64,000 nt of DNA. Origin: Microlunatus capsulatus. GTDB taxonomy: Bacteria; Actinomycetota; Actinomycetes; Propionibacteriales; Propionibacteriaceae. Where the stretch lies: the NCBI RefSeq assembly GCF_017876495.1, contig NZ_JAGIOB010000001.1, positions 3,844,001 to 3,908,000 of the forward strand, given 5' to 3'. The translations under genes and the position numbers were made by a program. The notes beneath the pieces were generated by a model. That model was not told where the DNA came from and did not search any database. It was given only the letters and a program-made list of their open reading frames with translations. How positions within the stretch are numbered: position 1 is the stretch's first letter; each line of letters starts with the position of its first letter. Shown here piece by piece: positions 47,449-62,714 of the stretch.

Positions 47449-47462
47449 TGGGAACGTTCCCA
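47449..47462. promoter_or_regulatory. LacI-type operator O1 (perfect palindrome)
   Basis: TGGGAACGTTCCCA, extended to a perfect 16-bp palindrome at 47448-47463, has the central CG of LacI-family sites. It lies about 200 bases before the sugar-binding protein gene. Near-identical sites occur at 53763 and 57774, and a LacI-family gene lies at 51698. Confidence 0.8.
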
Positions 47463-47547
47463 GAGCCCGCCGAGCACTTCTCCGGCCCTGACCAGAGGCC
47501 GTTTCAGGCTCAGCCGGACCTGTGCGGACGACACGGCCGGTCGCCGC

Positions 47548-47576
47548 TTGTCACTGCTGCGGCGCTGGACTACGTT
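47548..47576 (+). promoter_or_regulatory. Promoter of the sugar-binding protein gene
   Basis: TTGTCA (47548-47553) and TACGTT (47571-47576) are 17 bases apart, placing the start of transcription near 47583 and giving an 80-base leader. Operator O1 lies about 85 bases upstream of this -35. A weaker pair (TTGACG 47402, TAACCC 47423) just before O1 is an alternative. Confidence 0.6.
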
Positions 47577-47662
47577 CCCCCTGGAACCGATGCCACCCGA
47601 CCGGGGACCGCGGTTCCGCGTGGTCGCGACGGCGCGACCACGACCTGAGGAGAGGAACCGCG

Positions 47663-49042
47663 GTGAAGAAGAGCACGAGGACGCTGCTCGCTCTCGGTCT
47701 GGCCACGAGCCTGGGACTGATGAGCGCCTGCGGCGGGGGCGGTGACGCCGGCTCCGACGAGTCGGCCGACACGGGCCCCGCTTTCACGACCAACGCCACC
47801 GGGGACCTGAGCGCCTGGGGCTTCGAGAACGCCGACGAGGTCGGCACGTCGCGCCTGGACTACGCGAAGCAGAAGCTGAACGGCGTCAGCATCAAGATCG
47901 ACGCGACGGCCTTCGACGCGCAGAAGTTCACGACCCGTGCGGCCAGCGGCGAGGTTCCCGACGTCGTGCAGATGGACCGGCGCCTCGTCGGCACCTACGC
48001 GGCGCAGGGCCTGATCCGCCCGCTCGACACCTGCTTCTCGGCCCACGGGGTCGACCCGAAGAGCCAGTACTACCCCTCCGTCGTGGACGACGTCACCTAC
48101 GACCAGAAGCTGTGGGCGGTGCCGCAGTTCTACCAGCCGCCGGCCATCATCCTGAACCAGCGCGTGATGGAGAAGGCCGGCGTGACCGCGGCCGACATCG
48201 ACACCTCCAAGCCCGACGCACTGCTCGCGGCGGCCGGCAAGATGTACGTGGCCAGCGGGGGCAACCCCGAGACGCTGGGCTTCGACCCGGTGGCGACCGG
48301 CCAGTCCGAGCTGTGGATCCTCGGCCTCGGCGGCCAGCTGATCGACGCCGAGGGCGTCCCGACGTTGGACAACCCGGCCAACGCCAAGGCGCTCAGCTTC
48401 CTCAAGCAGCTGATGGACGCCCAGGGCGGCTACGCGAAGGTCAAGAGCTTCACCGACTCCTTCGACACCTTCGGCGAGAAGAACCAGTACGTCGCCGACC
48501 AGGTGGGGGCCCAGGTCAACGCCCAGTGGTACGTCAACGTGCTGACGCCCTACGTCAAGGACGTGCAGATCTCGGCCGTGCCGTTCAAGAACGCCGACGG
48601 GCAGCCCTTCACCGTCGCCGGCGGCACCTCCTTCGTCATCCCGACGGCGGCGAAGAACCCCGACGCCGCGTGCGCGTGGGCGGTCAACCTGACCTCCCAG
48701 GACGCGTGGATGGCGGCGGGCGCGGCGCGCGCGAAGACGATCGCCGGCACCCCGGGCGCCATCAACACCGGGCTCTTCACCGGCTCACCGGCGGCCGACC
48801 AGGCCATCCGCAGCGAGTACGTCAAGGAGAGCGACAACACCGGCTTCAACGAGACCATCGCCACGTACTACGACGTGGTGAGCACGGGGAAGTCCTACGG
48901 CGCCTCGCCGGCCGGCCAGCAGATCCAGACCGAGGTGCAGAACGCCATCACCTCGACGCTGCTCGGCACCAAGGAGCCGGACGCCGCCCTCGCCGACGCG
49001 CAGACGTCGGCGATGCGGGCCTACAACCAGGTCGCCGGCTGA
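47663..49042 (+). CDS. Sugar ABC transporter substrate-binding lipoprotein
   Basis: Encodes 459 residues from a GTG behind GAGGAGAGGAA. The signal ends in a lipobox LMSAC with the lipidated cysteine at 23. The mature protein has the two-lobed CUT1 solute-binding pattern (KQKLNGVSIKIDATAFDAQKFTTRAASGEVPDVVQMD; ending NQVAG). Two tryptophan-rich stretches may stack against a sugar. It should deliver substrate to the permeases encoded convergently at 49506-51442. Operator O1 upstream suggests control by the local LacI protein. Confidence 0.9.
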   Translation: MKKSTRTLLALGLATSLGLMSACGGGGDAGSDESADTGPAFTTNATGDLSAWGFENADEVGTSRLDYAKQKLNGVSIKIDATAFDAQKFTTRAASGEVPDVVQMDRRLVGTYAAQGLIRPLDTCFSAHGVDPKSQYYPSVVDDVTYDQKLWAVPQFYQPPAIILNQRVMEKAGVTAADIDTSKPDALLAAAGKMYVASGGNPETLGFDPVATGQSELWILGLGGQLIDAEGVPTLDNPANAKALSFLKQLMDAQGGYAKVKSFTDSFDTFGEKNQYVADQVGAQVNAQWYVNVLTPYVKDVQISAVPFKNADGQPFTVAGGTSFVIPTAAKNPDAACAWAVNLTSQDAWMAAGAARAKTIAGTPGAINTGLFTGSPAADQAIRSEYVKESDNTGFNETIATYYDVVSTGKSYGASPAGQQIQTEVQNAITSTLLGTKEPDAALADAQTSAMRAYNQVAG

Positions 49043-49065
49043 GCACCAGCCGCGACTGAAGGCCT

Positions 49066-49101
49066 CGAGCGGCCCCGGACCTGCTGGTCCGGGGCCGCTC
49101 G
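49066..49101 (+). terminator. Strong terminator after the binding-protein gene
   Basis: CGAGCGGCCCCGGACC (49066-49081) pairs perfectly with GGTCCGGGGCCGCTCG (49086-49101), a 16-pair stem with a TGCT loop, 23 bases after the stop. Confidence 0.9.
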
Positions 49102-49184
49102 CGCGTCCGGGACCGGCACCCCCGCCGGGACGCGGCGGGCCGTGCGGGTAGACAAGGGGGCAGACCGAGCACAGGAGGCTGGAC

Positions 49185-49388
49185 ATGAGCGAGACCCCGA
49201 TGGACGACCCGCGCGCGATGGACGAGGAGGAGCTGGCCGAGGTGGACCTGCCCCCGGGTCCGGCCGACCCCTCGCTGGGGTCGGAGACGACCACCGAGGA
49301 CAGCTACGCGCAGGGGAGCACCAACGACCCCGACGGCGCCCACCGCGACGAGCCCGCGGGCGAGGACTACGCCGGCAGCGGGTTCTGA
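49185..49388 (+). CDS. Small acidic, probably disordered protein
   Basis: Encodes 67 residues from an ATG behind AGGAGG. The composition is dominated by aspartate, glutamate, proline, glycine and serine, with no hydrophobic core (MDEEELAEVDLPPGPADPSLGS). Ending in EDYAGSGF, it resembles small conserved acidic proteins of actinobacteria with no known role. It has its own terminators on each side and sits between the two halves of the transporter. Confidence 0.6.
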   Translation: MSETPMDDPRAMDEEELAEVDLPPGPADPSLGSETTTEDSYAQGSTNDPDGAHRDEPAGEDYAGSGF

Positions 49389-49404
49389 CCCGCTGGACCC
49401 CCGC

Positions 49405-49451
49405 ACGACGACGACCCTCCCGCAGCCCGGCTGCGGGAGGGTCGTCGTCGT
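49405..49451. terminator. Very strong hairpin between convergent genes
   Basis: A perfect 21-pair stem (49405-49425 with 49431-49451) and five-base loop CCCGG. Its inner part is CCCTCCCGCAG/CTGCGGGAGGG and its outer part a run of ACG/CGT triplets. It serves both the acidic protein gene and the convergent permease operon. Confidence 0.92.
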
Positions 49452-49478
49452 GGTGGGGGGTGCCGGCCCTGCGTCGCC

Positions 49479-49528
49479 CTCAGCCCTTGCGCCCCTGCGT
49501 GGCTCTCAGCCCTTGCGCCCCTGCGTGG
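49479..49528. repeat. Tandem 24-bp duplication at the permease 3' end
   Basis: The 24 bases starting CTCAGCCCTTGCGCCC occur at 49479-49502 and again at 49505-49528, a period of 26. The second copy includes the stop codon and last codons of the permease gene (GRKG). The first copy is a fresh duplicate outside the gene. Confidence 0.9.
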
Positions 49529-50462
49529 CGACGCCCTCGATGAAGTAGCGCTGGCCGAAGGCGAACAGCACGAGCATCGGCAGCGTCACCAGCAGCGAGG
49601 CGACCATGACGTACTGGTAGTCGCCCTGGCCGCCGTTGGTCGGGCTGTACTTCGTCATCGCGTAGGCGATGCCCAGCGGGACGGTGAAGTCCTCGACGCT
49701 GCCGGCGTTGAGGTAGATCAGGGCCGCCTGCAGGTTGTTCCAGCTGGACTGGAACTCGAAGAGGAACACGATGATGAACGAGGGGATGGCCAGCGGCATG
49801 GCGATCCGGCGGAACAGCCCGAAGTAGCTGGCGCCGTCCACCCGGGCGGCCTCGAAGAGCTCGCGCGGCAGGCCGAGGAAGAACTGGCGCTGCAGGAAGA
49901 TGTAGAAGGCCGAGCCGAACAGGTTGGCGCCCCACAGCGGCACGTTGGTGCCGAGGAACCCGAGGTTCTTCCAGATGAGGTACTGGGGGATCAGAGTGAC
50001 CGCGCCCGGCAGCATCATCGTCGCCAGCACCAGGCCGAACAGGAAGTTCCGCAGCGGGAACTTGAAGTAGGCGAAGCCGAAGGCCACCGCCGAGCTGGAG
50101 ACGGCGACGAAGAGCGCGGCGAGGACCGCGATCAGTACGCTGTTGCCCATCCAGCTGAGCAGCGGCAGCTGGTCCCAGACCTCGACGTAGTTGCTGGTCA
50201 GCACCGTCTCGGGGAACAGCCGGTTGTCGAAGACCTGCCCGCGGGGCTTGAGGCTCGCCGCGAGCAGCCACACGAACGGGTAGAGGAACAGCAGCGAGAA
50301 GGCGATGAGCGCGACCCACAGCAGGACCTTCGCGACGACGCTCTTGGGCCTGTACCAGCGGTTGACCGGGCGCCGGGCGGTGGTGGCGGAGTCGGCGACG
50401 GCGAGGCCGACGGCCTGGGCCGGTGCGGGCACGGTGCCCGAGGTGGGCTGGGTCACCGACAT
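49506..50462 (-). CDS. Sugar ABC transporter permease (MalG type)
   Basis: Encodes 318 residues from an ATG overlapping the stop of the upstream permease gene (TGATG). Six helices follow a disordered N-terminus. The EAA loop that contacts the ATPase reads EAARVDGASYFGLFRRIAMPLAIP, as in CUT1 inner-membrane subunits. It pairs with the MalF-type partner. No ATPase gene is in the window, so a shared MsiK-like ATPase encoded elsewhere probably powers the system. Confidence 0.93.
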   Translation of the reverse strand: MSVTQPTSGTVPAPAQAVGLAVADSATTARRPVNRWYRPKSVVAKVLLWVALIAFSLLFLYPFVWLLAASLKPRGQVFDNRLFPETVLTSNYVEVWDQLPLLSWMGNSVLIAVLAALFVAVSSSAVAFGFAYFKFPLRNFLFGLVLATMMLPGAVTLIPQYLIWKNLGFLGTNVPLWGANLFGSAFYIFLQRQFFLGLPRELFEAARVDGASYFGLFRRIAMPLAIPSFIIVFLFEFQSSWNNLQAALIYLNAGSVEDFTVPLGIAYAMTKYSPTNGGQGDYQYVMVASLLVTLPMLVLFAFGQRYFIEGVATQGRKG

Positions 50463-51442: not shown

Positions 51443-51550
51443 CAGGCCCCGCTCCGGCTGCGCACTGCGGCGTGCTCACGCCCCGTCGTCTCGACGCTCG
51501 ACACCCCGGTGACTCCTTCTGGGACGTGTGGCATCGTCACCACGACGGCG

Positions 51551-51579
51551 ACTCTAGGTGCTGCCCCAGGGGAGTGCAA
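51551..51579 (-). promoter_or_regulatory. Promoter of the permease operon
   Basis: On the minus strand TTGCAC (51579-51574) and TAGAGT (51556-51551) are 17 bases apart. A degenerate operator-like TGGGACGTGTGGCA (51520-51533) lies just downstream of the expected start site and matches 10 of 14 positions of TGGGAACGTTGCCA. Confidence 0.6.
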
Positions 51580-51697
51580 GGAAGTCGCAGGTGTCGTCAG
51601 CACGAGCCAGGCGTACCCACCCCGGTCGCCTCCGAAACCCCTGGTCCTGCTCCATCCGCACGCACCGGACGGCGTCGTCCGAGGGGAGAGCCACCTG

Positions 51698-52735
51698 ATG
51701 AGCACACCTCCCCGACCCGGCCCGGCCCGCCGGAGGGCGACGCTCAAGGACGTGGCCCGGGCGGCCGGCGTCTCCCAGTCGACCACCTCCCGCGCGCTCT
51801 CGGGCGAGGGCTACGTCGCCGCCGCCGTCCGCGAGCGGGTGCGCGACACCGCCGAGCGGCTGGGCTACGTGCCGCACGCGATGGCCCGCGGGCTGCGCAC
51901 CCAGGTGAGCCGGTCCGTCGGCGTCGTCGTCTCCGACCTGCGCAACACCTTCTACGCCGACCTGGCCGCGGGCGTCGCCGCCCGGGCCCGGGCGCACGGC
52001 TACACCGTCCTGCTGGTCGACGACCAGGGATCGGCCGACGACGAGCTGGCCGCGGCCCGCACCTTCGTCTCCACCCGGACGGCCGGCGTCGTCGTCACCC
52101 CGGTCTCGGCCGCCGTCACCGACTACCTGCTGGACCAGGGCATCCCCGTCGTCGAGGCCGACCGGCAGTTTTCGCCCGGTCGCTGCGACGCGGTGGTGGT
52201 GGACAACCACCACGTCGCCCGCCGGGTCACCGAGCACCTCCTCGACCTCGGCCACCGGCGGGTGGCCCTGCTGGTGGACGAGACCGACTGGACGACGGGG
52301 GCCGAGCGGGCCCGCGGGTACGCCGACGCGCTGGCGGGGGCCGGGCTGCCCGTCGACCCCGGCCTGCTGGTCCCGGTCGGCTGGGACGTCGACGGCGCCC
52401 GGCGGGCGGCGGTCGCCCTGCTCACCCGCCGCGAGCGGCCGACCGCCCTCTTCGCCGCGAACAACGTGCTGGCCGAGGGGGTGTGGCGCGCCGTCGGCGA
52501 CCTCGGGCTCGCCGTGCCCGAGGACGTCAGCCTCGTCTCCTTCGACGACGCCCGCTGGATGAGCATGGTCAGCCCCGGGATGACCGCGGTCGCCCAGGAC
52601 GTGGTGGCGCTGGGGGCGGCCGCGCTCGACCTGCTGCTGGCCCGCGTCGCCGTCCCCGACGCCGAGCCGCGCACCGTCGTGCTCGAGGCCGAGATCAGGC
52701 CGCGCGGCTCGACGGCCGCCCCGCGCCCCACCTGA
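51698..52735 (+). CDS. LacI-family transcriptional regulator
   Basis: Encodes 345 residues from an ATG behind GAGGGGAGAG. The helix-turn-helix TLKDVARAAGVSQSTTSRALSG (15-36) and hinge are followed by a periplasmic-binding-like domain (SVGVVVSDLRNTFYADLAAGV; HRRVALLVDE; TALFAANNVLAEGVWRAV). It is divergent from the permeases and is the best candidate to bind the three TGGGAACG operators in this region. The inducer is presumably the imported sugar or an early product. Confidence 0.92.
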   Translation: MSTPPRPGPARRRATLKDVARAAGVSQSTTSRALSGEGYVAAAVRERVRDTAERLGYVPHAMARGLRTQVSRSVGVVVSDLRNTFYADLAAGVAARARAHGYTVLLVDDQGSADDELAAARTFVSTRTAGVVVTPVSAAVTDYLLDQGIPVVEADRQFSPGRCDAVVVDNHHVARRVTEHLLDLGHRRVALLVDETDWTTGAERARGYADALAGAGLPVDPGLLVPVGWDVDGARRAAVALLTRRERPTALFAANNVLAEGVWRAVGDLGLAVPEDVSLVSFDDARWMSMVSPGMTAVAQDVVALGAAALDLLLARVAVPDAEPRTVVLEAEIRPRGSTAAPRPT

Positions 52736-52761
52736 GCCCGCGCGCCGGACGTCAGCGTCGG

Positions 52762-53559
52762 TCAGCGCGGCTCCGGGTCGAGCCGACCGGCCGGGGTGCG
52801 GACCGGCACCCGCGGTGCCCAGCGGGCCAGCCGCGCCCGACCGCGGTCGTCCAGCCCGTCGTCGGTGACCAGGCCGTCCACCGCGTCCCAGCCCGCGACG
52901 TGCACCGGGGCGCGGGCGCCCAGCTTGCCGGCGTCGGCCACCACCAGCACCTGCGCGGCGGCGGCCAGCAGGGTGCGTTTGGTCGCGGCCTCGGTGGCGT
53001 CGTGGCAGGAGAGCCCGTCGGCGCGCAGCGCCGAGGCGGACAGCACGGCGAGGTCGACGGCCAGGCCGGCCAGCTGGGCGCAGGTCTCGGGGCCGCCGAA
53101 GGAGCGGGTGGGAGCGTGGTACCCGCCGCCCAGGCCCACGAGGGTGAGGTCGTCGCGGTCGGCGCAGGCGGCCATCACGGGGACCGAGTGCGTCACCACG
53201 GTGAGCCCGCCCGGCAGCCGGCGGGCCACCTGCTCGACGGTCGTGCCCGCGTCCAGGGCGACCACGGCTCCCGGGCCGACGAGCTCGCCGGCCAGCAGCC
53301 CCGCGGCGAGGGCGCCGACCTGCTCCTTGGCCGCGGCGGCCGCGACCGCCCGCGTGACGAAGGGGGCGCCGTCGGGACGGCGGGCGCCGCCCACCACGCG
53401 CAGCACGAGGCCCTGCTCGGCCAGCTGGTCGAGGTCGCGGCGGACCGTCATGTCCGAGACGCCCAGCTCCGCGGCGACCGACCGCGACGCGACGTAGCCC
53501 TGCTGCTCCACCCGGCGGCGCAGCTCGTCGCGCCGGACCGCTGCCTCCCGGTACCGCAC
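52762..53559 (-). CDS. DeoR-family transcriptional regulator
   Basis: Encodes 265 residues from a GTG. The N-terminal DeoR helix-turn-helix (about 8-60) has RRDELRRRVEQQGYV and ELGVSDMTVRRDLDQLAEQG. The C-terminal sensor domain (about 80-235) includes ALDAGTTVEQVARRLP and KRTLLAAAAQVLVVADAGKLG, which bind phosphorylated sugars. It is divergent from the MBL-fold gene. A 9-bp inverted repeat in the gap is its likely operator. Together with the LacI protein, it gives the locus two sugar inputs. Confidence 0.92.
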   Translation of the reverse strand: MRYREAAVRRDELRRRVEQQGYVASRSVAAELGVSDMTVRRDLDQLAEQGLVLRVVGGARRPDGAPFVTRAVAAAAAKEQVGALAAGLLAGELVGPGAVVALDAGTTVEQVARRLPGGLTVVTHSVPVMAACADRDDLTLVGLGGGYHAPTRSFGGPETCAQLAGLAVDLAVLSASALRADGLSCHDATEAATKRTLLAAAAQVLVVADAGKLGARAPVHVAGWDAVDGLVTDDGLDDRGRARLARWAPRVPVRTPAGRLDPEPR

Positions 53560-53634
53560 GGCCCGCTCCTCTCCCGCCCGTGACCCGGGCCGCCGGGGTC
53601 CCGAACGGCCCCTCGGCGAGTGTCCTAGACTGGC

Positions 53635-53662
53635 GAGAAGTGTTCAACTCTGCACACTTCTC
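53635..53662. promoter_or_regulatory. Inverted repeat, probable DeoR operator
   Basis: GAGAAGTGT (53635-53643) is mirrored by ACACTTCTC (53654-53662) with ten bases between. A TAGACT -10-like element on the plus strand at 53626-53631 and a minus-strand TTGAAC-N17-GACACT pair overlap it, so binding could affect both the DeoR gene and the MBL gene. Confidence 0.65.
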
Positions 53663-53761
53663 CGCCGTGCCCGGCGGGCCGCCGCACCCCGCGGATTCTC
53701 GCCCGTCCGACCGGCTGACCCACCCGCCCGACCACCCCGACCGAGAGAGCCCGGCACCCCT

Positions 53762-55702
53762 GTGGGAACGATCCCAGAAACGGCCCGTGCGACCGCCCCC
53801 ACCGCCACGACAGCCCCCGCCGCGCGGACCGGGGGAGCGGCCGGTCCGGGCTGGAGCGAGGTCGCCCCGGACGTCGTCCGGGTCGAGGACACGTGCGCGG
53901 TCTACGTCGTCCGCGCCGAGCCGGGTGCGGGCGCCGTGGGGGAGCGGACGGGCGTCTGCGTGGACTTCGGCTCGGGCCGGGTGCTGGACCTGCTGCCCGC
54001 CCTCGGCCTGGACCGGATCACCGACGTCGTGATGACCCACCACCACCGCGACCAGGGCCAGGGCCTGCCCCGCGCGGTCGCGGCCGGCGTCCGGGTGCAC
54101 GTGCCCCCGGTCGAGGTCGAGCTCTTCACCGCCGTCGACCGGATGTGGGAGGGCCGCCAGCTCGACAACCGCTACCTGCTGCGCGACGACCACCTGTCCC
54201 TGCTGGAGCCCGTGGCGGTGACGGGGACGGTGCCGGAGTACCGGGAGGCTGACTACGGGGGCGTCCGGCTGCGGGCGCTGCCCACCCCGGGGCACACCGT
54301 CGGCTCGGTCAGCTACCTGCTGGACCGCGGCGGGCAGCGGACGGCCTTCACCGGTGACTTGCTGTACGGCCCGGGCCAGGTGTGGTCGCTGGCCTCGACC
54401 CAGTGGTCCTACACCGAGAACGAGGGCCCGGCCATGACGGTCCTCAGCGCCCTGCTGCTGGGGGACGAGGAGCCGGACCTGCTGCTGCCCTCGCACGGCC
54501 GGCCGATGCCGGAGGCCCGCGCCGCGCTGGCGCTGCTCGCCGAGCGGATGCAGACCTACGTCGACAGCCGGCGCCCCCGGCCCTGGGACCTCCGGCGCTG
54601 GCTGCGCGACCCCTTCACCCCGCTCACCGAGCACCTGCTGCTCAACCGCAGCAGCCTCGCGGCCAGCTACGTGCTGCTCTCGCGCACCGGCGAGGCCCTG
54701 CTGGTCGACTACGGCTACGACGTCACCACCGGTCTGCCGGGCGCCGCCGACCGGGCCGCCCGCCGGCCGTGGCTGGCGTCGCTGCGGGCGCTCCGGGAGC
54801 TGTACGGCGTCCGCCGGGTGTCGGTCGCGCTGCCCACCCACTACCACGACGACCACGTGGCCGGCATGCCGCTGCTGCGGGCGGTCGAGGGCACCGAGAT
54901 CTGGGCCCCCGAGCACGTGGCGCGGGTGCTGGCCGAGCCCGACGACCTCGACCTGCCCTGCCGCTGGTTCGACCCCGTCGTCGCCGACCGCAGGCTCCCG
55001 CTGGGGGAGTCGTTCCGCTGGAACGAGTACACGCTGACGGTGCACGACCTGCCGGGCCACACCCGCTACGCCGCCGCCTACGAGGTCGAGGTGGACGGCG
55101 TGCGCGCCCTCTTCACCGGCGACCAGCAGGACGGGCTGGGGGAGCCGGGCGTGCGGGCCGAGGTCCTCAACTACCAGTACCGCAACCGGTTCGGCCTCGA
55201 GGACTACCGGCGCAGCGCGGCGCTCTACCAGCGGGTGGCGCCGGGGCTCATGCTCACCGGGCACTGGAGCCCGCGCGACGTCGACCAGGCCTACCTCGAC
55301 GACCTCAGCCGCCGCGGCGAGGAGCTGGTCGCGGTGCACCGCGCCCTGCTGCCGCTGGACGAGCTCGACCTGGGCGCTGACTCGGTGCTGGCCCGGATCC
55401 GCCCCTACCGCTCGCGGGTGCGCCCGGGCGGCACCCTCGGCTTCACCCTCGAGGTCCGCAACCCGCTGCCCGAGGCGGCCGACGTGGACCTGGTCCCGGT
55501 GCTGCCCCGGGGCTGGACGAGCCCACCGGTCCCGACGTTGCGGCTGGGACCGGGGGAGAGCGCCGACGTCACCTGGACGGCCACCGCGAGCGGCCCGCCC
55601 GGCCACCACCGCCGGGTCGCCGTCGACCTCACCATCGGCGCGCTCCGGCTCGGCCAGCACGCCGAGGCCCTCGTCGACGTCCTCGACTCCGACGCGGCCT
55701 GA
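53762..55702 (+). CDS. Double metallo-beta-lactamase-fold hydrolase
   Basis: Encodes 646 residues; the GTG at 53762 is the only clear start but overlaps operator O2. A low-complexity leader precedes an MBL domain (about 33-275) with THHHRDQG (H93, H95, D97, Q98). This replaces the last histidine of HxHxDH by glutamine, while GHTVGS, TGDLLYG and PSHGRP are kept. A second MBL domain (about 315-545) has the complete THYHDDH (H360, H362, D364, H365), GHTRY, TGDQQ and TGHW. A C-terminal beta-sandwich follows from about 555. The substrate is unknown; its place in the sugar regulon suggests lactone or ester hydrolysis. Confidence 0.8.
   Translation: MGTIPETARATAPTATTAPAARTGGAAGPGWSEVAPDVVRVEDTCAVYVVRAEPGAGAVGERTGVCVDFGSGRVLDLLPALGLDRITDVVMTHHHRDQGQGLPRAVAAGVRVHVPPVEVELFTAVDRMWEGRQLDNRYLLRDDHLSLLEPVAVTGTVPEYREADYGGVRLRALPTPGHTVGSVSYLLDRGGQRTAFTGDLLYGPGQVWSLASTQWSYTENEGPAMTVLSALLLGDEEPDLLLPSHGRPMPEARAALALLAERMQTYVDSRRPRPWDLRRWLRDPFTPLTEHLLLNRSSLAASYVLLSRTGEALLVDYGYDVTTGLPGAADRAARRPWLASLRALRELYGVRRVSVALPTHYHDDHVAGMPLLRAVEGTEIWAPEHVARVLAEPDDLDLPCRWFDPVVADRRLPLGESFRWNEYTLTVHDLPGHTRYAAAYEVEVDGVRALFTGDQQDGLGEPGVRAEVLNYQYRNRFGLEDYRRSAALYQRVAPGLMLTGHWSPRDVDQAYLDDLSRRGEELVAVHRALLPLDELDLGADSVLARIRPYRSRVRPGGTLGFTLEVRNPLPEAADVDLVPVLPRGWTSPPVPTLRLGPGESADVTWTATASGPPGHHRRVAVDLTIGALRLGQHAEALVDVLDSDAA
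53763..53776. promoter_or_regulatory. LacI-type operator O2
   Basis: TGGGAACGATCCCA differs from O1 by one base. It coincides with the first codons of the MBL gene start at 53762, so a bound repressor would act as a roadblock just inside the gene or its leader. Confidence 0.75.
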
Positions 55703-55785: not shown

Positions 55786-56880
55786 TCAGCCCAGGCCCAC
55801 CCGGGCGGCGGCGGAGGGCCAGGACTCCAGCACCGCGCGCACGTCCGGGCGCCGCTCCTCGGCGACGGCCCGCCGGTGCGCCTGCTCGACGAGGTCGGCG
55901 ACCTGCACCCAGCGGCTCTGCTCGGCGGAGGCGGTGGCGGCGTCGACCATCGCGACGCTGAGCACGTTGCGGTGCACCTCCCCGGACGGCTCGCCGCCGT
56001 CGCGGAGCACGCGGACGAACTCGGCCAGCGAGCCGGCGATCTGCTCGGGCGCCTCCGAGCCGGTGCCCTCGACGGGGCTGCCGTCGGCCCGCTCGGCGAC
56101 GGGGGCGGTGTCCCCGTCCCAGACCGCCGAGCCCTCCGCCGTGGTCAGCCGCCAGGAGCCGTTCCAGGAGGTCTCCCGGCCGGGGCTGCACCACGAGCCG
56201 TCGAAGGTGAAGCGGGCGCCGTTCGCGAACCGGAAGACCGCGGTGGCGGCCGCGTCGCCGGCGTACCAGGACCAGGGCGGGTTGGACGAGGAGCAGAACG
56301 CCTCGACGGGCTCGCTGCCGACGAGGTCGCGGGCCAGGTCGAACTGGTGGATGGCCATGTCGACCAGCAGCGGGTACGGCATCGTGTCCCGGAAGCCCCC
56401 GAAGTGCGGGGCCTTCGCGAAGGTGCAGGAGGCGAGCCCGACCGGCCCCAGCGCGCCCAGCTGGGAGCGCAGCCGGTCGAGGTGGCGCCAGTACCGCCGC
56501 GACTGGGACACCATCAGCAGCTGCCCGGTCAGCTCGGAGACGGCCACCATCGACAGGCACTCGGCCAGCGACTCCGACAGCGGCTTCTCGCACAGCACCG
56601 GCAGCCCGGCCAGCAGCGCCTCGGTGTTGACGGGGTGGTGCGCCCGCGGGACGGTCACGTCGACGACGGCCTGCGCCCCCGTCGGGCCCGCCAGCCCCGC
56701 CAGCGTGCTGGCCACCGGGACGCCCGCGTGCCCGGTCGCGTCGGCGGCCTCCCGGGCGGTGCCGAGGTCGAGGTCGACCAGCCCGACCAGCTCGACGTCG
56801 GGGTTCGCGGCGATGGTGCCCAGCCAGGCCCGGCCCATCCCGCCGGCGCCCACCTGCAGCAGCCGCAGCGGCTCAGGCAT
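55786..56880 (-). CDS. Gfo/Idh/MocA family oxidoreductase (ThuB-like)
   Basis: Encodes 364 residues from an ATG that overlaps the upstream ThuA gene by eight bases. The NAD(P)-binding motif is GAGGMG (12-17), and the signature CEKPLSES (from C96) carries the active lysine K98. A catalytic histidine lies in DMAIHQFD. Enzymes of this family oxidise sugar hydroxyls, often at C3. Pairing with ThuA recalls ThuAB of rhizobia, in which ThuB makes 3-keto sugars. The substrate here is not known. Confidence 0.88.
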
Positions 56881-57670
56881 CGGCGTCCGCGATCGCGCCC
56901 TGGTAGCCGTGCCCGCGGTAGAACTCGCCGGACTCGTAGCGCAGCAGCGTCGGGACCGCGCGCTCGGCCCGGGCCGTCCGCGCCCAGGCGACGCCGTTGG
57001 CGATGACGCGGCGCACGTCGCGGTGGTGGTAGACGGGGTAGTCCTGGTCGCCGGGGGAGAAGAAGAAGATCTTGCCGTGGCCGCGCCGGAAGGTGCAGCC
57101 GGAGCGGAACACCTCGCCGCCGGTGAAGGAGGAGATGAACACCAGCTCGTCGGGCGCCGGGATGTCGAACGTCTCGCCGTACATCTCCTGCTGGTCGATG
57201 ACGATCGGGTTGGGCACCCCCTGGGCGATCGGGTGCGTCGGGTCGACGGTCCAGACCAGCTCGCGGTCCTGCTCGCTGCGCCAGCGCAGGGTGCACGTCG
57301 TGCCCATCAGCCGGCCGAAGATCTTCGACCAGTGGCCCGAGTGCAGCACCAGCAGCCCCATCCCGGCCAGCACGTGCTGATGGACGCGGTCGACGACGGC
57401 GTCGGCCACCTCGCCGTGCGCGGCGTGCCCCCACCAGACGAGGACGTCGGTGGCGGCCAGCACCTCCTCGGTCAGCCCGTGCTCGGGCTCGTCGAGGGTG
57501 GTGGTGGTGACCACGGCCGCGTCGCCGAGGTTCTCGGCGATGCCCGCGGCGATGGTGGCGTGCATGCCGTCGGGGTACAGGGCGGCGACGTGCGGCTCGA
57601 CCTGCTCGTGCCGGTTCTCCCCCCAGACCAGGACGCGCAGGGACGGGGCGGGTGCGGTGGGGGTGCTCAT
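56873..57670 (-). CDS. ThuA-like glutamine-amidotransferase-fold protein
   Basis: Encodes 265 residues from an ATG. The ThuA pattern is clear: [44 protein letters not shown], and a closing [23 protein letters not shown]. The family lacks the cysteine of true amidotransferases and works in sugar catabolism next to Gfo/Idh/MocA enzymes. It opens the two-gene operon and is divergent from the SIS-mannosidase operon, with operator O3 in the shared gap. Confidence 0.88.
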
Positions 57671-57741
57671 GGCGCCCCGAGTCTTCGGCCCGGCCCGGAC
57701 GGTGTCAAGGTCCCCGGCCCGCGCGTCGGCGACCCCGCTGG

Positions 57742-57770
57742 TTGACCGCCCCCGGGGCCCTGCCTAGGCT
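57742..57770 (+). promoter_or_regulatory. Promoter of the SIS-mannosidase operon
   Basis: TTGACC (57742-57747) and TAGGCT (57765-57770) are exactly 17 bases apart. Operator O3 starts four bases later, covering the expected start of transcription, a classic repressor position. The leader to the SIS gene would be about 235 bases. Confidence 0.8.
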
Positions 57771-57773
57771 GCC

Positions 57774-57787
57774 TGGGAACGTTGCCA
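57774..57787. promoter_or_regulatory. LacI-type operator O3
   Basis: TGGGAACGTTGCCA differs from O1 at a single position in the right half. It overlaps the transcription start predicted for the SIS-GH38 operon and may also govern the divergent thuA-like operon. Confidence 0.8.
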
Positions 57788-57820
57788 CAGCACCTGTGGC
57801 CCCCGGACGGAAGGCCTCGC

Positions 57821-58027
57821 GTGGCAGCCCCGCAGCACCCGGTGCCCGAGGTCGGCGTCGGCGTCGGCGGTCCCGGGCGCGGGACGGACGTGCGGGCCGT
57901 CCTCGCCGCCGTGCCGTGGGTGGAGCACCCCGGGCTGGGTAACGGCGTCGGGGTGCGCGCGCCGCCCCCGCGCGCCGACCGCCCCCGACCGCCAGCCGAC
58001 GGAGAGCCTGCATGCCCGAGCCGATGA
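57821..58027 (+). CDS. Possible short leader ORF
   Basis: A GTG behind GGAAGG opens 68 codons with no similarity to a known family. It is rich in glycine, valine, proline and arginine (VPEVGVGVGGPGRG) and overlaps the SIS gene start by 16 bases. High GC at third positions is as in real genes, but chance frames in this genome look alike. It could be a leader peptide, a decayed gene start or noise. Confidence 0.25.
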   Translation: MAAPQHPVPEVGVGVGGPGRGTDVRAVLAAVPWVEHPGLGNGVGVRAPPPRADRPRPPADGEPACPSR

Positions 58028-58650
58028 CCGACGACCTGACCGAGCACCTGCGCACCGCGGAGGCCACGGCGACCCTGCTGCCGGCGGCGCGGGCCGTGGC
58101 CGCGCTGCTGTGCGAGCGGTTCGCCGCGGGCCACGGCCTGTGGACCCTCGGGAACGGGGGCAGCGCCGCCGACGCCCAGCACCTCACCGGGGAGATGGTC
58201 GGCCGGTTCAAGCGGGAGCGCCGCCCGCTGCCCGCGGTCACGCTCAGCACTGACCCGACGGTGATGACCTGCATCGCCAACGACTACCGCTTCGACGACG
58301 TCTTCTCCCGCCAGCTGCTCGCCCTGGCCCGGCCGGGCGACGTCGTCGCCGCCTTCACCACCAGCGGGCGCTCGCCCGACGTCGTCGACGCGCTCCGGGT
58401 CGCCCGGGGGCGGGGGGCCACGACGGTCCTCTTCGGCGGCGGGGACGGCGGACCGGCCGCCGCCCACGCCGACCACGCCCTGCTGGTGCCCAGCACCACG
58501 ACGGCCCGCATCCAGGAGATGCACACCTTCCTGCTGCACGCCGTCTCGGAGGTGGTCGACCTCTGGGCCGTCGGCACCGAGCCCGCCGCCGAGGCGGCCG
58601 CCGCCCCGGCGGCCGACGACCACGTCGTCGGGACCGGGTCCCCCGCGTGA
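58012..58650 (+). CDS. SIS-domain phosphosugar isomerase (GmhA-like)
   Basis: Encodes 212 residues from an ATG behind GGAGA. A single SIS domain is visible: LWTLGNGGSAADAQHLTGEMVGRF binds phosphate, TTSGRSPDVVDALRVARGRG is the second phosphosugar loop, and RIQEMHTFLLHAVSEVVD has the glutamate and histidine pattern of GmhA, the sedoheptulose-7-phosphate isomerase. No heptose pathway genes are near, so another ketose/aldose phosphate is likely. It is coupled to the GH38 gene (GTGA overlap), consistent with a role after mannoside cleavage. Confidence 0.87.
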   Translation: MPEPMTDDLTEHLRTAEATATLLPAARAVAALLCERFAAGHGLWTLGNGGSAADAQHLTGEMVGRFKRERRPLPAVTLSTDPTVMTCIANDYRFDDVFSRQLLALARPGDVVAAFTTSGRSPDVVDALRVARGRGATTVLFGGGDGGPAAAHADHALLVPSTTTARIQEMHTFLLHAVSEVVDLWAVGTEPAAEAAAAPAADDHVVGTGSPA

Positions 58651-61226
58651 GCCCGGCACCCCTGTCCAACGCGCCCTCGGGACCGCAGCCGGGCGACCGC
58701 CCGGCCGGCCCGCGTCCGCTGGCCACCCCCGACCGGACGCTGTACATGATCGGCAACGCCCACCTCGACCCGGTCTGGCTCTGGCCCTGGCAGGAGGGCT
58801 ACGCCGAGGCCCGGGCGACGTTCGCGTCCGCCGTCGCGCGGATGGCCGAGCACCCCGACTTCGTCTTCACCTGCGACCAGGTGGTGCTGCTCAGCTGGGT
58901 GGAGGAGTCCGACCCGGAGCTGTTCGCCGCCATCCGCGCCCGCGAGGCCGAGGGGCGCTGGGTCAACGCGGGCGGCTGGTGGGTGGAGCCCGACGGGAAC
59001 CTCGGGATGGGGGAGTCCTTCGTCCGCCAGGGCCTGCTCGGGCAGCGCTACCTGCTCTCCCGGTTCGGCCGGCCGGCCACGGTGGGGATGAACGTCGACC
59101 CCTTCGGCCACCACGCGATGCTGCCCCAGATCCTGCGCGGCCAGGGCCTCGACTCCTACCTCTTCCTGCGGCCCGGCCCGCACGAGGGCGACCTGGAGCC
59201 GACGCTGTTCTGGTGGGAGTCGCCCGACGGCTCCCGCGTCCTCGCCTACCGGATCCCCTACGAGTACGGCAGCCCGCCCGGTCCCGTCGACGGCCAGGTC
59301 GAGAAGTCGCTGGCCTCGATGGACCGCGGCCTTGGCGACGGGATGGTCTTCTACGGCGTCGGCAACCACGGCGGCGGCCCGACGCGGGCCAACATCGACT
59401 CCATCCACCGCTTCGACCGGATGGGCTCCTTCGGCCGGCTGCGCATGGCCTCCCCGCGCGAGTACCTGGACGCCGCCCTGGCCACGCCGGGGCTGGCCGA
59501 GCGCCTCGTCGTCCGCCGCGACGACCTCCAGCACCACGCCCCCGGCTGCTACTCCGCCCACTCCGGGGTCAAGGCCTGGCAGCGCCGCGCCCAGCACGCC
59601 GTGCTGGCCGCGGAGCGGTGGGCCGCCGTCGTCGCGCTCCGGGACGGCCTGCCCTACCCGCGGGAGCAGCTGACCGGGGCGTGGCAGCAGATCCTCTTCA
59701 ACCAGTTCCACGACGTGCTGCCCGGCTCCGCCATCGAGACCGCCTACGACGACGCCCGCGACCAGCTGGGCGAGGCGACGGCGATCGCCAAGCGGCTGGT
59801 CGTCCGGGCCCACAACGTGCTGGCCCGGCAGGTCGACGTGCCGTTCGAGGAGGGCACCCAGCCGGTGCTCGTGCTCAACCCGCACCCCTGGGCCGTCAGC
59901 ACCGACGTGGTCATGACCTACGCCGCCCAGCGCTCCGGCGTCGGGGTCGTCGACGAGGCGGGCCGCCTGGTCGTCGCCCAGCCCACGCAGTCGACCTCGA
60001 CGACGGCCGACCTGACCCGGGGCGCCGTCGTCTTCCGCGCCGACGTCCCCGCGCTCGGCTACCGGCTGTACCGGCTGGTGCCGGCGTCGCCCGCTCCGGC
60101 GGCGGCGGGCTGGAGCGCGGGGCCGCCGCAGCCGCTGCGCGCCGACACCTCGGTGCTGGAGAACGACCACGTGCGCATCGAGCTCGACCCGGAGACCGGC
60201 TGGATCCGCTCCTACGCCGACCGGGCGAGCGGCGTGGACGTGATGGCCGGGGTCGACGGGTCCACCCACACCCAGGTCTGCGCCGACCCCACCGACACCT
60301 GGGGCCACCGCGTCGTCTCCTACGCCTGGCCGGGCGCCACGATGGAGCTGCGCCGGGTCGTCGTCCGCGAGACCGGCCCGCTGCGCACCCGGGTCCGGGT
60401 GGAGCGGGCCTGGGGAGCCTCGACCCTGGTCGAGGAGCTGGTGCTCGACCACGACAGCCCCGTCCTGCGGGTGGAGGTGACGCTGGACTGGCGCGAGCCC
60501 GCCCACCTGCTCAAGCTGCGGTTCCCGACGGTGCTGGCCGACCCGCGCGCCACCTACGAGATCCCCTTCGGGCAGCTGGAGCGGCCGGTCGACGGCGCCG
60601 AGGAGCCGGCCCAGGCCTGGGTGGACCTGACGGGCACGGTCGCCGGCCGGCCGGCCGGTCTCACGCTGGTGACCACGGACAAGCACGGCTACGACGTCTC
60701 GCCCGGCGCCGAGCCGAGCATCGGCCTCACCGCAGTCCGCAGCCCCGTCTACTCCTGGCACGACCCCCAGCTGCTCGACCCCGACGGCTTCTACAGCTAC
60801 CAGGACCAGGGGGTCCAGCGCTTCCGCTACGAGCTGGTGCCGCACGCGGGCGACCACCGCGCCGCCGCCCCGACCCGCCGCGCCGCCGTGCTGGCCACCG
60901 GCGTCCGGGCCATGGTCGAGTCCTCCCACCCGGGGCCGCTGCCGCCGGTGGCCTCCTTCGTCGACGACGGCGGGGGGGCCGTGCTGGTCACCGCGGTCAA
61001 GGGCTCGGAGGACCCGGTGGACCACCCCGGCGGGGCCGACCTCGTCGTCCGCGCCGTCGAGACGTCCGGGCGGCCCGCGCGGTCGCGGATCGTGCTCGGG
61101 CTGCTGGACCGGGTGCTGGAGGAGGACTTCGGGGCGCACCAGATCCGCACCTTCCGGGTGCCCGCCGACCCGGCCGCACCCGTGCAGGAGGTCGACCTCG
61201 TCGAGTGGCCGCTCGTGGACGGCTGA
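58647..61226 (+). CDS. GH38 alpha-mannosidase
   Basis: Encodes 859 residues from a GTG. Residues 32-45 hold the zinc-binding start NAHLDPVWLWPW (H39, D41), and D151 in MNVDPFGHHAMLP is the catalytic nucleophile. GVGNHGGGPT supplies more zinc/substrate residues. The central three-helix and C-terminal beta domains characteristic of GH38 follow (ENDHVRIELDPETGWIRSYADRASG). No signal peptide, so it acts on imported oligosaccharide in the cytoplasm. It removes alpha-linked mannose or a related sugar. Confidence 0.93.
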   Translation: MSPAPLSNAPSGPQPGDRPAGPRPLATPDRTLYMIGNAHLDPVWLWPWQEGYAEARATFASAVARMAEHPDFVFTCDQVVLLSWVEESDPELFAAIRAREAEGRWVNAGGWWVEPDGNLGMGESFVRQGLLGQRYLLSRFGRPATVGMNVDPFGHHAMLPQILRGQGLDSYLFLRPGPHEGDLEPTLFWWESPDGSRVLAYRIPYEYGSPPGPVDGQVEKSLASMDRGLGDGMVFYGVGNHGGGPTRANIDSIHRFDRMGSFGRLRMASPREYLDAALATPGLAERLVVRRDDLQHHAPGCYSAHSGVKAWQRRAQHAVLAAERWAAVVALRDGLPYPREQLTGAWQQILFNQFHDVLPGSAIETAYDDARDQLGEATAIAKRLVVRAHNVLARQVDVPFEEGTQPVLVLNPHPWAVSTDVVMTYAAQRSGVGVVDEAGRLVVAQPTQSTSTTADLTRGAVVFRADVPALGYRLYRLVPASPAPAAAGWSAGPPQPLRADTSVLENDHVRIELDPETGWIRSYADRASGVDVMAGVDGSTHTQVCADPTDTWGHRVVSYAWPGATMELRRVVVRETGPLRTRVRVERAWGASTLVEELVLDHDSPVLRVEVTLDWREPAHLLKLRFPTVLADPRATYEIPFGQLERPVDGAEEPAQAWVDLTGTVAGRPAGLTLVTTDKHGYDVSPGAEPSIGLTAVRSPVYSWHDPQLLDPDGFYSYQDQGVQRFRYELVPHAGDHRAAAPTRRAAVLATGVRAMVESSHPGPLPPVASFVDDGGGAVLVTAVKGSEDPVDHPGGADLVVRAVETSGRPARSRIVLGLLDRVLEEDFGAHQIRTFRVPADPAAPVQEVDLVEWPLVDG

Positions 61227-61313
61227 GCCCACCGGGCGTGGCGCTCGACGCGCCGGTGAGACGTGGGACACACTGCTCGGGCACGTGCCCCCACCCCTCG
61301 ACGAGGAGACCCC

Positions 61314-62714
61314 ATGGCCACCGAGCCCCCCGTCGGCGCCGCGACCGACGCCCCGAAGCGGCGCGACCGCACGCACTACCTCTACATCGCCGTCATCGCG
61401 GCCGTGGCGCTCGGCATCGTCGTCGGCTTCGTCGCCCCCGACTTCGCGGTGGAGCTCAAGCCGCTCGGCGACGGGTTCGTCGCCCTCATCCGGATGATGA
61501 TCGCCCCGGTGATCTTCTGCACCATCGTGCTGGGCATCGGCTCGCTGCGCAGCGCCGCCCAGGTGGGCAAGGTGGGCAGCCTCGCGCTGGTCTACTTCCT
61601 CACCATGTCGACGGTCGCGCTGGTCATCGGGCTGGTGGTGGGCAACATCATCCACCCCGGCGAGGGGCTGCGGCTGACCGAGGAGCTGGCCGGCAAGGGC
61701 GCCGGGCTGGCGCCGAAGGAGGCCGCGACGACGGCCGAGTTCATCCTCAACATCATCCCCGAGACCCTCTTCTCGGCCCTGACCACCGAGACCGTGCTGC
61801 AGACGCTGCTGGTCGCGCTCCTCGTCGGCTTCGCGATCCAGGCCATGGGGACCTCCGGCGAGCCGATCCTGGTGGGGATCGGGCACCTGCAGCGGCTCGT
61901 CTTCCGCGTGCTGTCCATGATCATGTGGGCGGCGCCGGTCGGGGCCTTCGGGGCGATCGCCGCCGTCGTGGGCGCGACGGGCCTCGACGCGCTCAAGGCG
62001 CTGGCCGTGATCATGATCGGCTTCTACACGACCTGCGCGATCTTCGTCTTCGGCGTCCTCGGCCTGCTGCTCAAGGCCTTCACCGGGATCAACATCTTCA
62101 AGCTGCTGCGCTACCTCGGCCGGGAGTTCCTGCTCATCGTCTCCACCTCGTCCTCGGAGTCGGCCCTGCCGCGGCTCATCGCGAAGATGGAGCACCTCGG
62201 CGTGGCCAGGCCCACCGTCGGCGTCGTGGTCCCCACCGGCTACTCGTTCAACCTGGACGGCACGGCCATCTACCTGACGATGTCGTCGCTGTTCATCGCC
62301 GCCGCGCTCGGCGACCCGCTGACGATCCCGGAGCAGATCTCCCTGCTGGTGTTCATGATGATCGCCTCCAAGGGCGCGGCGGGCGTCACCGGCGCCGGGC
62401 TGGCCACCCTGGCCGGCGGCCTGGCCTCGCACCGCCCCGACCTGGTGGACGGCGTCGGCCTGATCGTCGGCATCGACCGGTTCATGTCCGAGGCGCGGGC
62501 GGTGACCAACTTCGCGGGCAACGCCGTGGCCACCGTCCTCGTCGGCTCCTGGACGCGGTCGCTGGACCGCGAGCAGCTGGACGCGGTGCTGGCCGGCCAG
62601 CGGCCGTTCGACGAGACGACGATGACCGACGACCACGGCGACGAGCCGGCACCGGTCGACGCCCCCGCCTCGGAGGTGACCGCCGCCGCGGTCGCACCGA
62701 CCACCCAGCGCTGA
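61314..62714 (+). CDS. Dicarboxylate/amino acid:cation symporter (DAACS/DctA family)
   Basis: Encodes 466 residues from an ATG behind GAGGAG. About eight helices plus two reentrant loops are expected. Signature segments are intact: STSSSESALPRL (HP1 serine-rich loop), GYSFNLDGTAIYLTM, MIASKGAAGVTGAG (HP2) and EARAVTNFAGNAVATVLV. The family imports C4-dicarboxylates or acidic amino acids with sodium or protons. It follows the mannosidase by 87 bases and may be cotranscribed or independent. Confidence 0.92.
   Translation: MATEPPVGAATDAPKRRDRTHYLYIAVIAAVALGIVVGFVAPDFAVELKPLGDGFVALIRMMIAPVIFCTIVLGIGSLRSAAQVGKVGSLALVYFLTMSTVALVIGLVVGNIIHPGEGLRLTEELAGKGAGLAPKEAATTAEFILNIIPETLFSALTTETVLQTLLVALLVGFAIQAMGTSGEPILVGIGHLQRLVFRVLSMIMWAAPVGAFGAIAAVVGATGLDALKALAVIMIGFYTTCAIFVFGVLGLLLKAFTGINIFKLLRYLGREFLLIVSTSSSESALPRLIAKMEHLGVARPTVGVVVPTGYSFNLDGTAIYLTMSSLFIAAALGDPLTIPEQISLLVFMMIASKGAAGVTGAGLATLAGGLASHRPDLVDGVGLIVGIDRFMSEARAVTNFAGNAVATVLVGSWTRSLDREQLDAVLAGQRPFDETTMTDDHGDEPAPVDAPASEVTAAAVAPTTQR

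What the first reader, a model, noticed from the sequence alone, without database searches (positions are those of the whole stretch)
47449..62714. Uncharacterised sugar regulon with GH38, ThuA/ThuB-like pair, SIS isomerase and double MBL protein under shared operators
One 15-kb region joins a CUT1 importer (no ATPase), LacI and DeoR regulators, a double metallo-beta-lactamase-fold protein, ThuA plus a Gfo/Idh/MocA enzyme, a SIS isomerase and GH38. Three LacI-type sites (TGGGAACGTTCCCA, TGGGAACGATCCCA, TGGGAACGTTGCCA) mark units on different strands. ThuAB-type enzymes and GH38 are individually known, but this gene combination with an MBL enzyme has no pathway that I can name.
Basis: partly seen in the sequence, partly recalled or inferred. 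Interest (0 to 1): 0.75.

Follow-up and report, generated by a model that had tools for sequence, protein, structure and literature searches.

The report
Mannoside regulon with a tandem metallohydrolase
A soil actinobacterium appears to switch on a sugar importer, an alpha-mannosidase, a sugar isomerase and a puzzling two-headed metal enzyme together through one repressor, and much of the same set recurs in other bacteria, so its unknown enzymes can be tested as one pathway.

Summary
The region is real and mostly as described. The operator TGGNAACGNTNCCA occurs exactly three times in the 4.41-Mb genome, all here. Two weaker copies lie just after -10 boxes of the binding-protein and permease promoters. 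In 80 loci encoding relatives of the double metallo-beta-lactamase-fold (MBL) protein the motif occurs 53 times (reversed 0; shuffled mean 0.37), only in actinobacterial ones. The close relative G113 lacks the LacI-DeoR-MBL block and has no exact site. MBL, LacI, SIS, GH38 and an ABC importer form a conserved core, usually with a ROK kinase and an unannotated GH31/GH36-like protein not found in this locus. In the order, all 13 MBL genomes of 147 also carry this GH38, 12 within 8 kb.

ThuA-Gfo is not part of the core: ThuA in 0 of 80 loci, and without GH38 in 8 of 9 other genus loci fetched. Best reading: a LacI-repressed system for alpha-mannosylated oligosaccharides, related to known GH38 importer loci, with an uncharacterised tandem-MBL enzyme. 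Substrate and MBL reaction are inferred.

The parts
47449..47462 (.). LacI-type operator, perfect palindrome TGGGAACGTTCCCA, 85 bp upstream of the SBP -35 box (auxiliary site)
   Evidence: no promoter match next to it; absent from the aligned G113 DNA
47548..47576 (+). sigma70-like promoter of SBP, TTGTCA-N17-TACGTT
   Evidence: same elements in G113; promoter match not tested against chance
47582..47595 (.). weak operator TGGAACCGATGCCA, 5 bp after the SBP -10 box
   Evidence: one mismatch to the consensus; rests on position
47663..49042 (+). sugar-binding protein of a CUT1-type importer (SBP_bac_1)
   Evidence: 61-68% identical homologues in 4 of 80 MBL loci
49506..50462 (-). importer permease B
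   Evidence: 74-83% in L019, L027, L053, L064
50462..51442 (-). importer permease A
   Evidence: 70-81% in L027, L048, L053, L064
51529..51542 (-). weak operator TGGTGACGATGCCA, 8 bp after the permease -10 box (TTGCAC-N17-TAGAGT, 51579-51551 on the minus strand)
   Evidence: rests on position
51698..52735 (+). LacI-family repressor, presumed to bind these operators
   Evidence: relatives in 54 of 80 loci; next gene after MBL in 39 of 78
52762..53559 (-). DeoR-family regulator
   Evidence: relatives (26-55% identity) in 14 of 80 loci
53635..53662 (.). inverted repeat GAGAAGTGT-N10-ACACTTCTC, candidate DeoR site
   Evidence: inference from position
53763..53776 (.). operator TGGGAACGATCCCA overlapping the GTG start of the MBL gene
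53762..55702 (+). tandem metallo-beta-lactamase-fold protein with a C-terminal beta-rich part
55786..56880 (-). Gfo/Idh/MocA oxidoreductase (guest pair, not in the conserved core)
56873..57670 (-). ThuA-domain protein (guest pair, not in the conserved core)
57742..57770 (+). sigma70-like promoter of SIS-GH38, TTGACC-N17-TAGGCT
   Evidence: not tested against chance
57774..57787 (.). operator TGGGAACGTTGCCA, 3 bp after the SIS-GH38 -10 box
58012..58650 (+). SIS-domain aldose-ketose isomerase of GmhA type
   Evidence: in the 80 loci a SIS gene directly precedes GH38 in 39 cases, 23 of them overlapping by 4 bases
58647..61226 (+). GH38 alpha-mannosidase, closest solved relatives are Ams1-type
61263..62714 (+). 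sodium:dicarboxylate symporter; neighbour, no evidence that it belongs
   Evidence: 0 of 80 loci; 93% identical in G113

Best explanation
This is a LacI-repressed catabolic regulon for an alpha-mannosylated oligosaccharide. Without inducer the LacI protein sits on TGGNAACGNTNCCA sites that cover the start points of the SBP, permease and SIS-GH38 promoters and the start codon of the MBL gene. Inducer releases it. The importer (SBP plus two permeases, borrowing an ATPase encoded elsewhere) brings the sugar in. Cytoplasmic GH38 removes alpha-mannose. A kinase (a ROK beside these genes in most relatives; here presumably another ROK of the genome) makes the 6-phosphate, and the GmhA-type SIS enzyme turns aldose phosphate into ketose phosphate for glycolysis. 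The tandem-MBL protein hydrolyses a further bond of the substrate or a product, most likely a lactone or ester. ThuA and Gfo are a guest pair joined to SIS-GH38 in this lineage. Shown: gene content, operators, their conservation in Actinomycetota and their absence where the LacI is absent in the genus. Inferred: repressor-site pairing, substrate class, kinase, ATPase and the MBL reaction.
For: Exact operator only here in 4.41 Mb. 53 exact sites in 80 loci, reversed 0, 200 letter-shuffled patterns mean 0.37, max 6; neighbouring gene starts are MBL 16, SBP 12, ROK 7, PX 6, NAGidase-like 6 and unclustered genes 10 (a site between two genes can count twice). In the genus 3 of 20 genomes have a LacI at >=55% identity; of 7 loci with a GH38 at >=61% identity, exactly those 3 hold an exact site. 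G113, 86-94% identical for SBP, permeases, Gfo, ThuA, SIS, GH38 and the symporter, lacks LacI-DeoR-MBL and any exact site genome-wide. Sites begin 3, 5 and 8 bp after the -10 boxes of three TTGNNN-N17-TANNNT promoters. Co-occurrence. GH38 aligns with Ams1 over the HxD, D-FG and HD-LPGS motifs. SIS aligns with phosphoheptose isomerases over the AQH-E and ARIQE-H motifs. Both MBL domains keep H93, H95, D97, H178, D199, H245 and H360, H362, D364, H365, H433, D454, H501 in 46 of 46 aligned proteins; that these are the metal ligands is recalled knowledge of the fold. Published loci combine GH38 with ROK, hexosaminidase and sugar ABC importers (passages of PMC6160142 and PMC5215778).
Against: No binding or expression data. 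26 of 53 LacI-bearing loci have no exact site and 5 of 27 loci without that LacI have one; none of the 15 loci I assigned to Bacilli or Chloroflexi has one. The two weak sites are not rarer than chance genome-wide, and one keeps a recognisable form in G113 where LacI is gone. Over the 20 genus genomes the exact motif (35 strand-hits) does not exceed its reversed control (40, of which 22 in G151 alone), and most hits lie outside these loci, so the motif is not specific to this regulon in every genome. The window lacks the ROK, PX and hexosaminidase genes typical of relatives; the genome's best ROK is only 42% identical. GH38 specificity is not proven by family. Nothing here identifies the MBL substrate. 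Ten of the 13 MBL genomes in the order share one genus label.
Confidence: 0.6

Rival explanations
1. One reading: all genes form one pathway in which Gfo oxidises a disaccharide to a 3-keto sugar, ThuA processes it, MBL opens a lactone, and GH38 and SIS complete the breakdown.
For: Adjacency in this genome and in G113; an exact operator lies between ThuA and SIS.
Against: ThuA in 0 of 80 MBL loci. In the 5 other genus genomes with the close GH38, ThuA is 0.7-2.3 Mb away (4) or on another contig (1), and ThuA-Gfo often has its own ABC/LacI (5 of 9 loci). No TANNNT box on the ThuA strand of the stretch examined, 57671-57830.
Confidence: 0.12
2. The substrate is an oligosaccharide from xanthan or a similar mannose-bearing exopolysaccharide, taken up after outside cleavage.
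For: GH38 occurs in xanthan loci of Paenibacillus and Microbacterium (passages of PMC12827396), and both genera are among the MBL loci.
Against: None of the 29 proteins scanned (representatives of recurring neighbours plus some flank genes) matched a xanthan lyase, GH88 or GH9 family; most neighbours were not scanned.
Confidence: 0.1
3. The SIS protein is a true phosphoheptose isomerase and the regulon handles a heptose-containing glycoside.
For: Closest solved relatives are phosphoheptose isomerases.
Against: All GmhA models match below their curated cut-offs, e.g. 170 of 276 bits; no ADP-heptose gene turned up among the scanned representatives of recurring families.
Confidence: 0.08
4. Chance neighbours: separate small operons that merely lie together, with operator look-alikes.
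For: Genes lie on both strands; ThuA-Gfo and the symporter are local neighbours only; the motif is not above its reversed control over the whole genus sample.
Against: Operator rarity in this genome and conservation in actinobacterial MBL loci and gene co-occurrence.
Confidence: 0.04

Closest known systems
Cutibacterium acnes proposed N-glycan loci 1 and 2 (PMC6160142, passages read)
   Same: GH38 about 30% identical to Ams1 and without signal peptide, sugar ABC binding protein and permeases, a regulator; locus 2 also has a ROK kinase
   Different: Locus 1 legend lists an ATP-binding protein, absent here; those loci have GH5_18, GH20, GH18 or GH125, GH4, which are not in this window region; no MBL, SIS or GH31/36-like protein mentioned in the passages read
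Streptococcus pneumoniae carbohydrate-processing locus and NgtS-P1-P2 importer (PMC5215778, passages read)
   Same: GH38 plus ROK, and an ABC importer for mannose/GlcNAc oligosaccharides encoded elsewhere in that genome
   Different: GH125, GH92, GH29, GH20, EndoD; no MBL or SIS in the passages read ('metallo' 0 occurrences)
Subclass B3 metallo-beta-lactamases, AHL lactonases and organophosphate hydrolases of the MBL fold
   Same: Fold and aligned metal-site motifs of single halves
   Different: Two complete domains plus a C-terminal beta-rich part in one 646-residue protein; below the cut-offs of all 14 NCBIfam families listed
GmhA phosphoheptose isomerases
   Same: Aligned over nearly the whole length including active-site motifs
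   Different: Below curated cut-offs; partner genes are GH38 and, in relatives, ROK
GH36/GH31 alpha-galactosidase and galactosaminidase fold (for the partner PX, absent here)
   Same: Predicted fold matches Flavonifractor galactosaminidase 9ayu, E 1.3e-19
   Different: Two members without Pfam match and one without NCBIfam match at E<=1e-3; 12% identity to 9ayu

Membership tests
LacI-type regulon | palindromic CG-centred operator rare in the genome and at target promoters | tested here: met
   promoter geometry itself not tested against chance
LacI-type regulon | operator present only where the cognate LacI is present | tested here: inconclusive
   met in the genus at the GH38 loci (3 with, 4 without); across 80 loci 27 of 53 with LacI and 5 of 27 without have sites; genus-wide the motif also occurs elsewhere
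LacI-type regulon | binding by the LacI protein and release by a sugar | not testable with these tools
   needs EMSA
Bacterial N-glycan/alpha-mannoside utilisation locus | GH38 with catalytic motifs | tested here: met
   roles of the residues recalled; cytoplasmic location not tested by a signal-peptide program
Bacterial N-glycan/alpha-mannoside utilisation locus | sugar ABC binding protein and permeases | tested here: met
   no ATPase gene here
Bacterial N-glycan/alpha-mannoside utilisation locus | hexosaminidase and/or beta-mannosidase in the locus | tested here: not met
   none in 47.4-62.7 kb; in relatives NAGidase family in 25 of 80 and GH2 in 9 of 80 (names from one scanned representative each)
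Bacterial N-glycan/alpha-mannoside utilisation locus | ROK sugar kinase in the locus | tested here: not met
   none here; 51 of 80 relatives; best ROK elsewhere in the genome 42%
ThuAB trehalose-type pathway | PF06283 ThuA beside a Gfo/Idh/MocA enzyme | tested here: met
   adjacent in 9 of 9 ThuA-bearing genus loci fetched
ThuAB trehalose-type pathway | oxidation to a 3-keto disaccharide | not testable with these tools
   no assay
GmhA phosphoheptose isomerase | score above curated cut-off | tested here: not met
   PRK13936 170.1 of 276; TIGR00441 157.6 of 209.45
Class B beta-lactamase | score above curated cut-off | tested here: not met
   bla_class_B_core 57.8 of 100; B3 56.1 of 240

The most novel reading that the evidence does not exclude
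The tandem-MBL protein with PX (GH31/36-like), a GmhA-type SIS and an Ams1-type GH38 is the core of an undescribed glycan-catabolic route, complete in many Actinomycetota and present in reduced or altered form in Chloroflexota and Bacillota, in which the tandem-MBL enzyme carries out a key bond cleavage of the glycan, or of a lactone or ester made from it, that no known glycosidase family performs.
Probability: 0.25. Interest if true: 0.75.

Novelty: new variant of a known kind. Interest (0 to 1): 0.45.

Why it matters
GH38-centred importer loci are known, but the tandem-MBL protein (close relatives at 43-90% identity in Actinomycetota, Chloroflexota and Bacillota) has no assigned reaction that I found. 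In Actinomycetota it is tied to one repressor motif and the same enzymes, so growth, transcription and enzyme tests can be aimed at once. Its frequent partner PX matched no Pfam or NCBIfam model and has a confident GH31/36-like model, so a second unassigned glycosidase comes with it.

Tried and rejected
Rejected: ThuA-Gfo as core; the symporter as member (0 of 80); a ROK relic or a PX relic in 46-64 kb (apart from the SIS half of ROK-SIS fusions and the MBL half of a PX-MBL fusion, tblastn gave nothing below E 0.03); the LacD-type aldolase that accompanies the related DeoR elsewhere (no match in the own genome, but that search lacked a positive control).

Led nowhere: paper searches on ThuA chemistry and 3-keto glycosides (listings only, nothing on this gene set seen), LacI regulons with alpha-mannosidase (one paper, not read), GH38 with ROK, phosphoheptose isomerase, LacI and MBL (0 papers), alpha-mannosidase with SIS, ROK and LacI (0 papers), MBL lactonase with alpha-mannosidase (0 papers). 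One search gave the Cutibacterium and pneumococcal papers and the xanthan paper, each read only as passages. That nothing is in print is limited to these ten searches of an open-licence library. A DeoR operator was looked for across loci; only a loose family resemblance was seen.

Limits: genes in the loci were called by my own codon-usage script, not by a standard caller. Some are cut by contig ends; 55 have at least 8 kb on both sides. Phylum groups were assigned by me from record titles. Names of recurring families come from one scanned representative each; GH1 (cluster 13) was named from its sequence by eye. One row (L008) aligned poorly, 30%, in the alignment used for the scan, where H178, H360, H365, H433 and D454 were therefore only nearly invariant. 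The MBL match in G084 has two stops and the GH38 match in G043 one.

Full report
Observation. The window lies in a single-contig genome of 4,409,943 bases; the closest named MBL relatives are from Microlunatus lacustris and uncultured Friedmanniella. It has three exact places in the whole genome, all in this region, and none when read backwards. At one mismatch there are ten places, five here, and the strand-hit total (17) does not exceed the reversed control (18).

Promoter anatomy. The TTGNNN-N17-TANNNT pairs found are TTGTCA/TACGTT before SBP, TTGCAC/TAGAGT before the permeases and TTGACC/TAGGCT before SIS-GH38. The sites at 47582, 51529 and 57774 begin 5, 8 and 3 bp after the -10 boxes, where a repressor would cover the start point. 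I did not test this geometry against chance. The site at 53763 overlaps the MBL start codon. In other loci 16 of 53 sites lie at the start of an MBL gene, and 7 of these end 0-9 bp before its called start. The protein of M. lacustris, P0003, begins MGTLP, which would fit the same overlap there; that is inference.

Conservation of the site. In 80 loci found with an MBL profile (1.52 Mb) the motif occurs 53 times in 32 loci, reversed 0, with 200 letter-shuffled patterns giving mean 0.37 and maximum 6. None of the 15 loci that I assigned to Bacilli or Chloroflexi has a site. 27 of 53 loci with the LacI and 5 of 27 without it carry one, so the pairing is strong but not complete. In the genus, a LacI of at least 55% identity exists in 3 of 20 genomes. 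Of the seven genomes with a GH38 of at least 61% identity, exactly those three have an exact site at the GH38 locus. The most telling is G113: SBP, permeases, Gfo, ThuA, SIS, GH38 and symporter are 86-94% identical and in the same order, apart from one extra hydrolase gene between SBP and the permeases, and genes of matching length and N-terminus flank them; but LacI, DeoR and MBL are missing, the gap between permease and Gfo being about 4.1 kb shorter, and no exact site remains anywhere in its genome. Whether G113 lost or this genome gained the block is not settled. Against the pairing: the 47582 site keeps a recognisable form in G113, and over all 20 genus genomes the exact motif (35 strand-hits) does not exceed its reversed control (40, of which 22 in G151), most hits lying away from these loci.

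Conserved gene set. tblastn of the window proteins against the 80 loci at E<=1e-8, at any identity, gave MBL 80, GH38 58, LacI 54, SIS 49, permease B 44, permease A 42, SBP 34, DeoR 14, ThuA 0, Gfo 0. At 1e-3 ThuA and the symporter are at 0 and Gfo reaches 9 at no more than 29% identity. Clustering of called genes adds partners absent from the window locus: an unannotated protein of mostly 550-650 residues, PX, in 70 of 80, a ROK kinase in 51, and less often GH127-like (26), NAGidase (25), FAD oxidoreductase (24), GH1 (16) and GH2 (9) (domains of representatives, GH1 by eye). In the 45 loci not assigned to Bacilli or Chloroflexi that have 8 kb on both sides: PX 42, GH38 38, LacI 37, SIS 35, ROK 33; in 6 such Bacilli loci GH38 5, ROK 3, SIS 2, PX 1; in 4 Chloroflexi loci GH38 3, PX 3, SIS 1, ROK 1. 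LacI is the next gene after MBL in 39 of 78. SIS directly precedes GH38 in 39 cases, 23 overlapping by 4 bases. Fusions link MBL with ROK (P0015, P0016), PX with MBL (L083) and ROK with SIS (L053, L054). Permeases of the window's own type (70-83% identical) sit in such loci in L019, L027, L048, L053 and L064. L064 (Pseudolysinimonas) holds relatives of the window's SBP, permeases, DeoR, MBL, SIS and GH38 but no such LacI, ThuA, Gfo or symporter.

A less biased count: of 147 genomes of the order, 13 have the MBL (E<=1e-30) and 18 this GH38 (E<=1e-100). All 13 MBL genomes have the GH38, 12 of them 0.9-7.9 kb away, and in G043 they lie on separate contigs. The naive probability is 6e-15, but 10 of the 13 share one genus label, so it overstates independence. 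Five GH38 genomes lack the MBL.

The guest pair. ThuA matches occur in 19 of 20 genus genomes, 13 of them of the >=72% type. In 9 of 9 other ThuA-bearing loci fetched it has Gfo beside it; in 5 of these an ABC importer and a distant LacI-type gene stand with it, and 8 of the 9 have no GH38 nearby. Of the 7 genomes with the close GH38, ThuA lies beside it only in this genome and G113; in four it is 0.7-2.3 Mb away and in one on another contig.

Enzymes. GH38 is closest to Ams1-type alpha-mannosidases among solved structures (E 3.2e-57, against 4.3e-9 for 2wyh), with the zinc and nucleophile motifs aligned (roles recalled). SIS is closest to phosphoheptose isomerases but below curated cut-offs. 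The MBL protein has two Lactamase_B stretches, and the expected metal-site positions of both domains are invariant in 46 proteins. Its model has mean pLDDT 89.3, and the best solved matches are subclass B3 enzymes covering under half of it (TM 0.28 by query length). PX, from L048, models at pLDDT 94.9; its best match is the Flavonifractor galactosaminidase (E 1.3e-19), and its profile touches GH31 alpha-galactosidases (E 1.6e-7). PX is not in this genome beyond one weak match (E 2.7e-6), and the best own ROK is 42% identical.

Reading. Importer, exo-alpha-mannosidase, isomerase and repressor make an intracellular alpha-mannoside pathway the simplest account. NAGidase and GH2 in some relatives, and a GH20 beside GH38 in one genus locus (L128; L130 has a protein of the same length and similar N-terminus that was not scanned), lean toward mannose/N-acetylglucosamine oligosaccharides, as proposed for the Cutibacterium and pneumococcal loci (passages read). 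Xanthan-type side chains remain possible (passages read). The MBL reaction is unknown; a lactone or ester hydrolase is a guess from its relatives.

Verdict. The regulon and core are well supported by sequence. ThuA-Gfo is a local addition. It is a new variant of a known kind of locus, with two unassigned enzyme families at its centre, one of which (PX) is missing here.

Noticed in passing
window 53635-53662: Inverted repeat GAGAAGTGT-N10-ACACTTCTC right after a TAGACT box between DeoR and MBL; DeoR-bearing loci L055, L058 and L064 have loosely similar TGTTC/GAACA-type repeats upstream of DeoR.
   Followed up: partly
P0015, P0016, L083, L053, L054: Natural fusions MBL-ROK, PX-MBL and ROK-SIS.
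   Followed up: partly
L019:16304-18742, also L024 and L064: A second, distant GH38-like family (PF01074 at 5e-8 for the L019 member) in loci with the core.
   Followed up: no
L128, L130 (genus genomes G153, G149): The close GH38 stands beside a 526-residue protein, GH20 in L128 by Pfam and similar-looking in L130, without MBL, SIS or LacI relatives nearby.
   Followed up: partly
L040, L045, L048, L051, L055, L058, L064: A DeoR-linked set next to the core: LacD-type aldolase in all 7, FGGY kinase in 6, Asp/Glu racemase in 5, oxo-tetronate kinase in 5, sucrose-phosphorylase-like GH13 in 4.
   Followed up: partly
window 46171-46932 and 61263-62714: TauE/SafE exporter and dicarboxylate symporter flank the region; the symporter is 93% identical in G113 and a gene of matching length and N-terminus stands in the exporter's place.
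   Followed up: partly
L122:8076-9815 (G113): An alpha/beta-hydrolase gene lies between SBP and the permeases in G113, where this genome has only a short gap.
   Followed up: no
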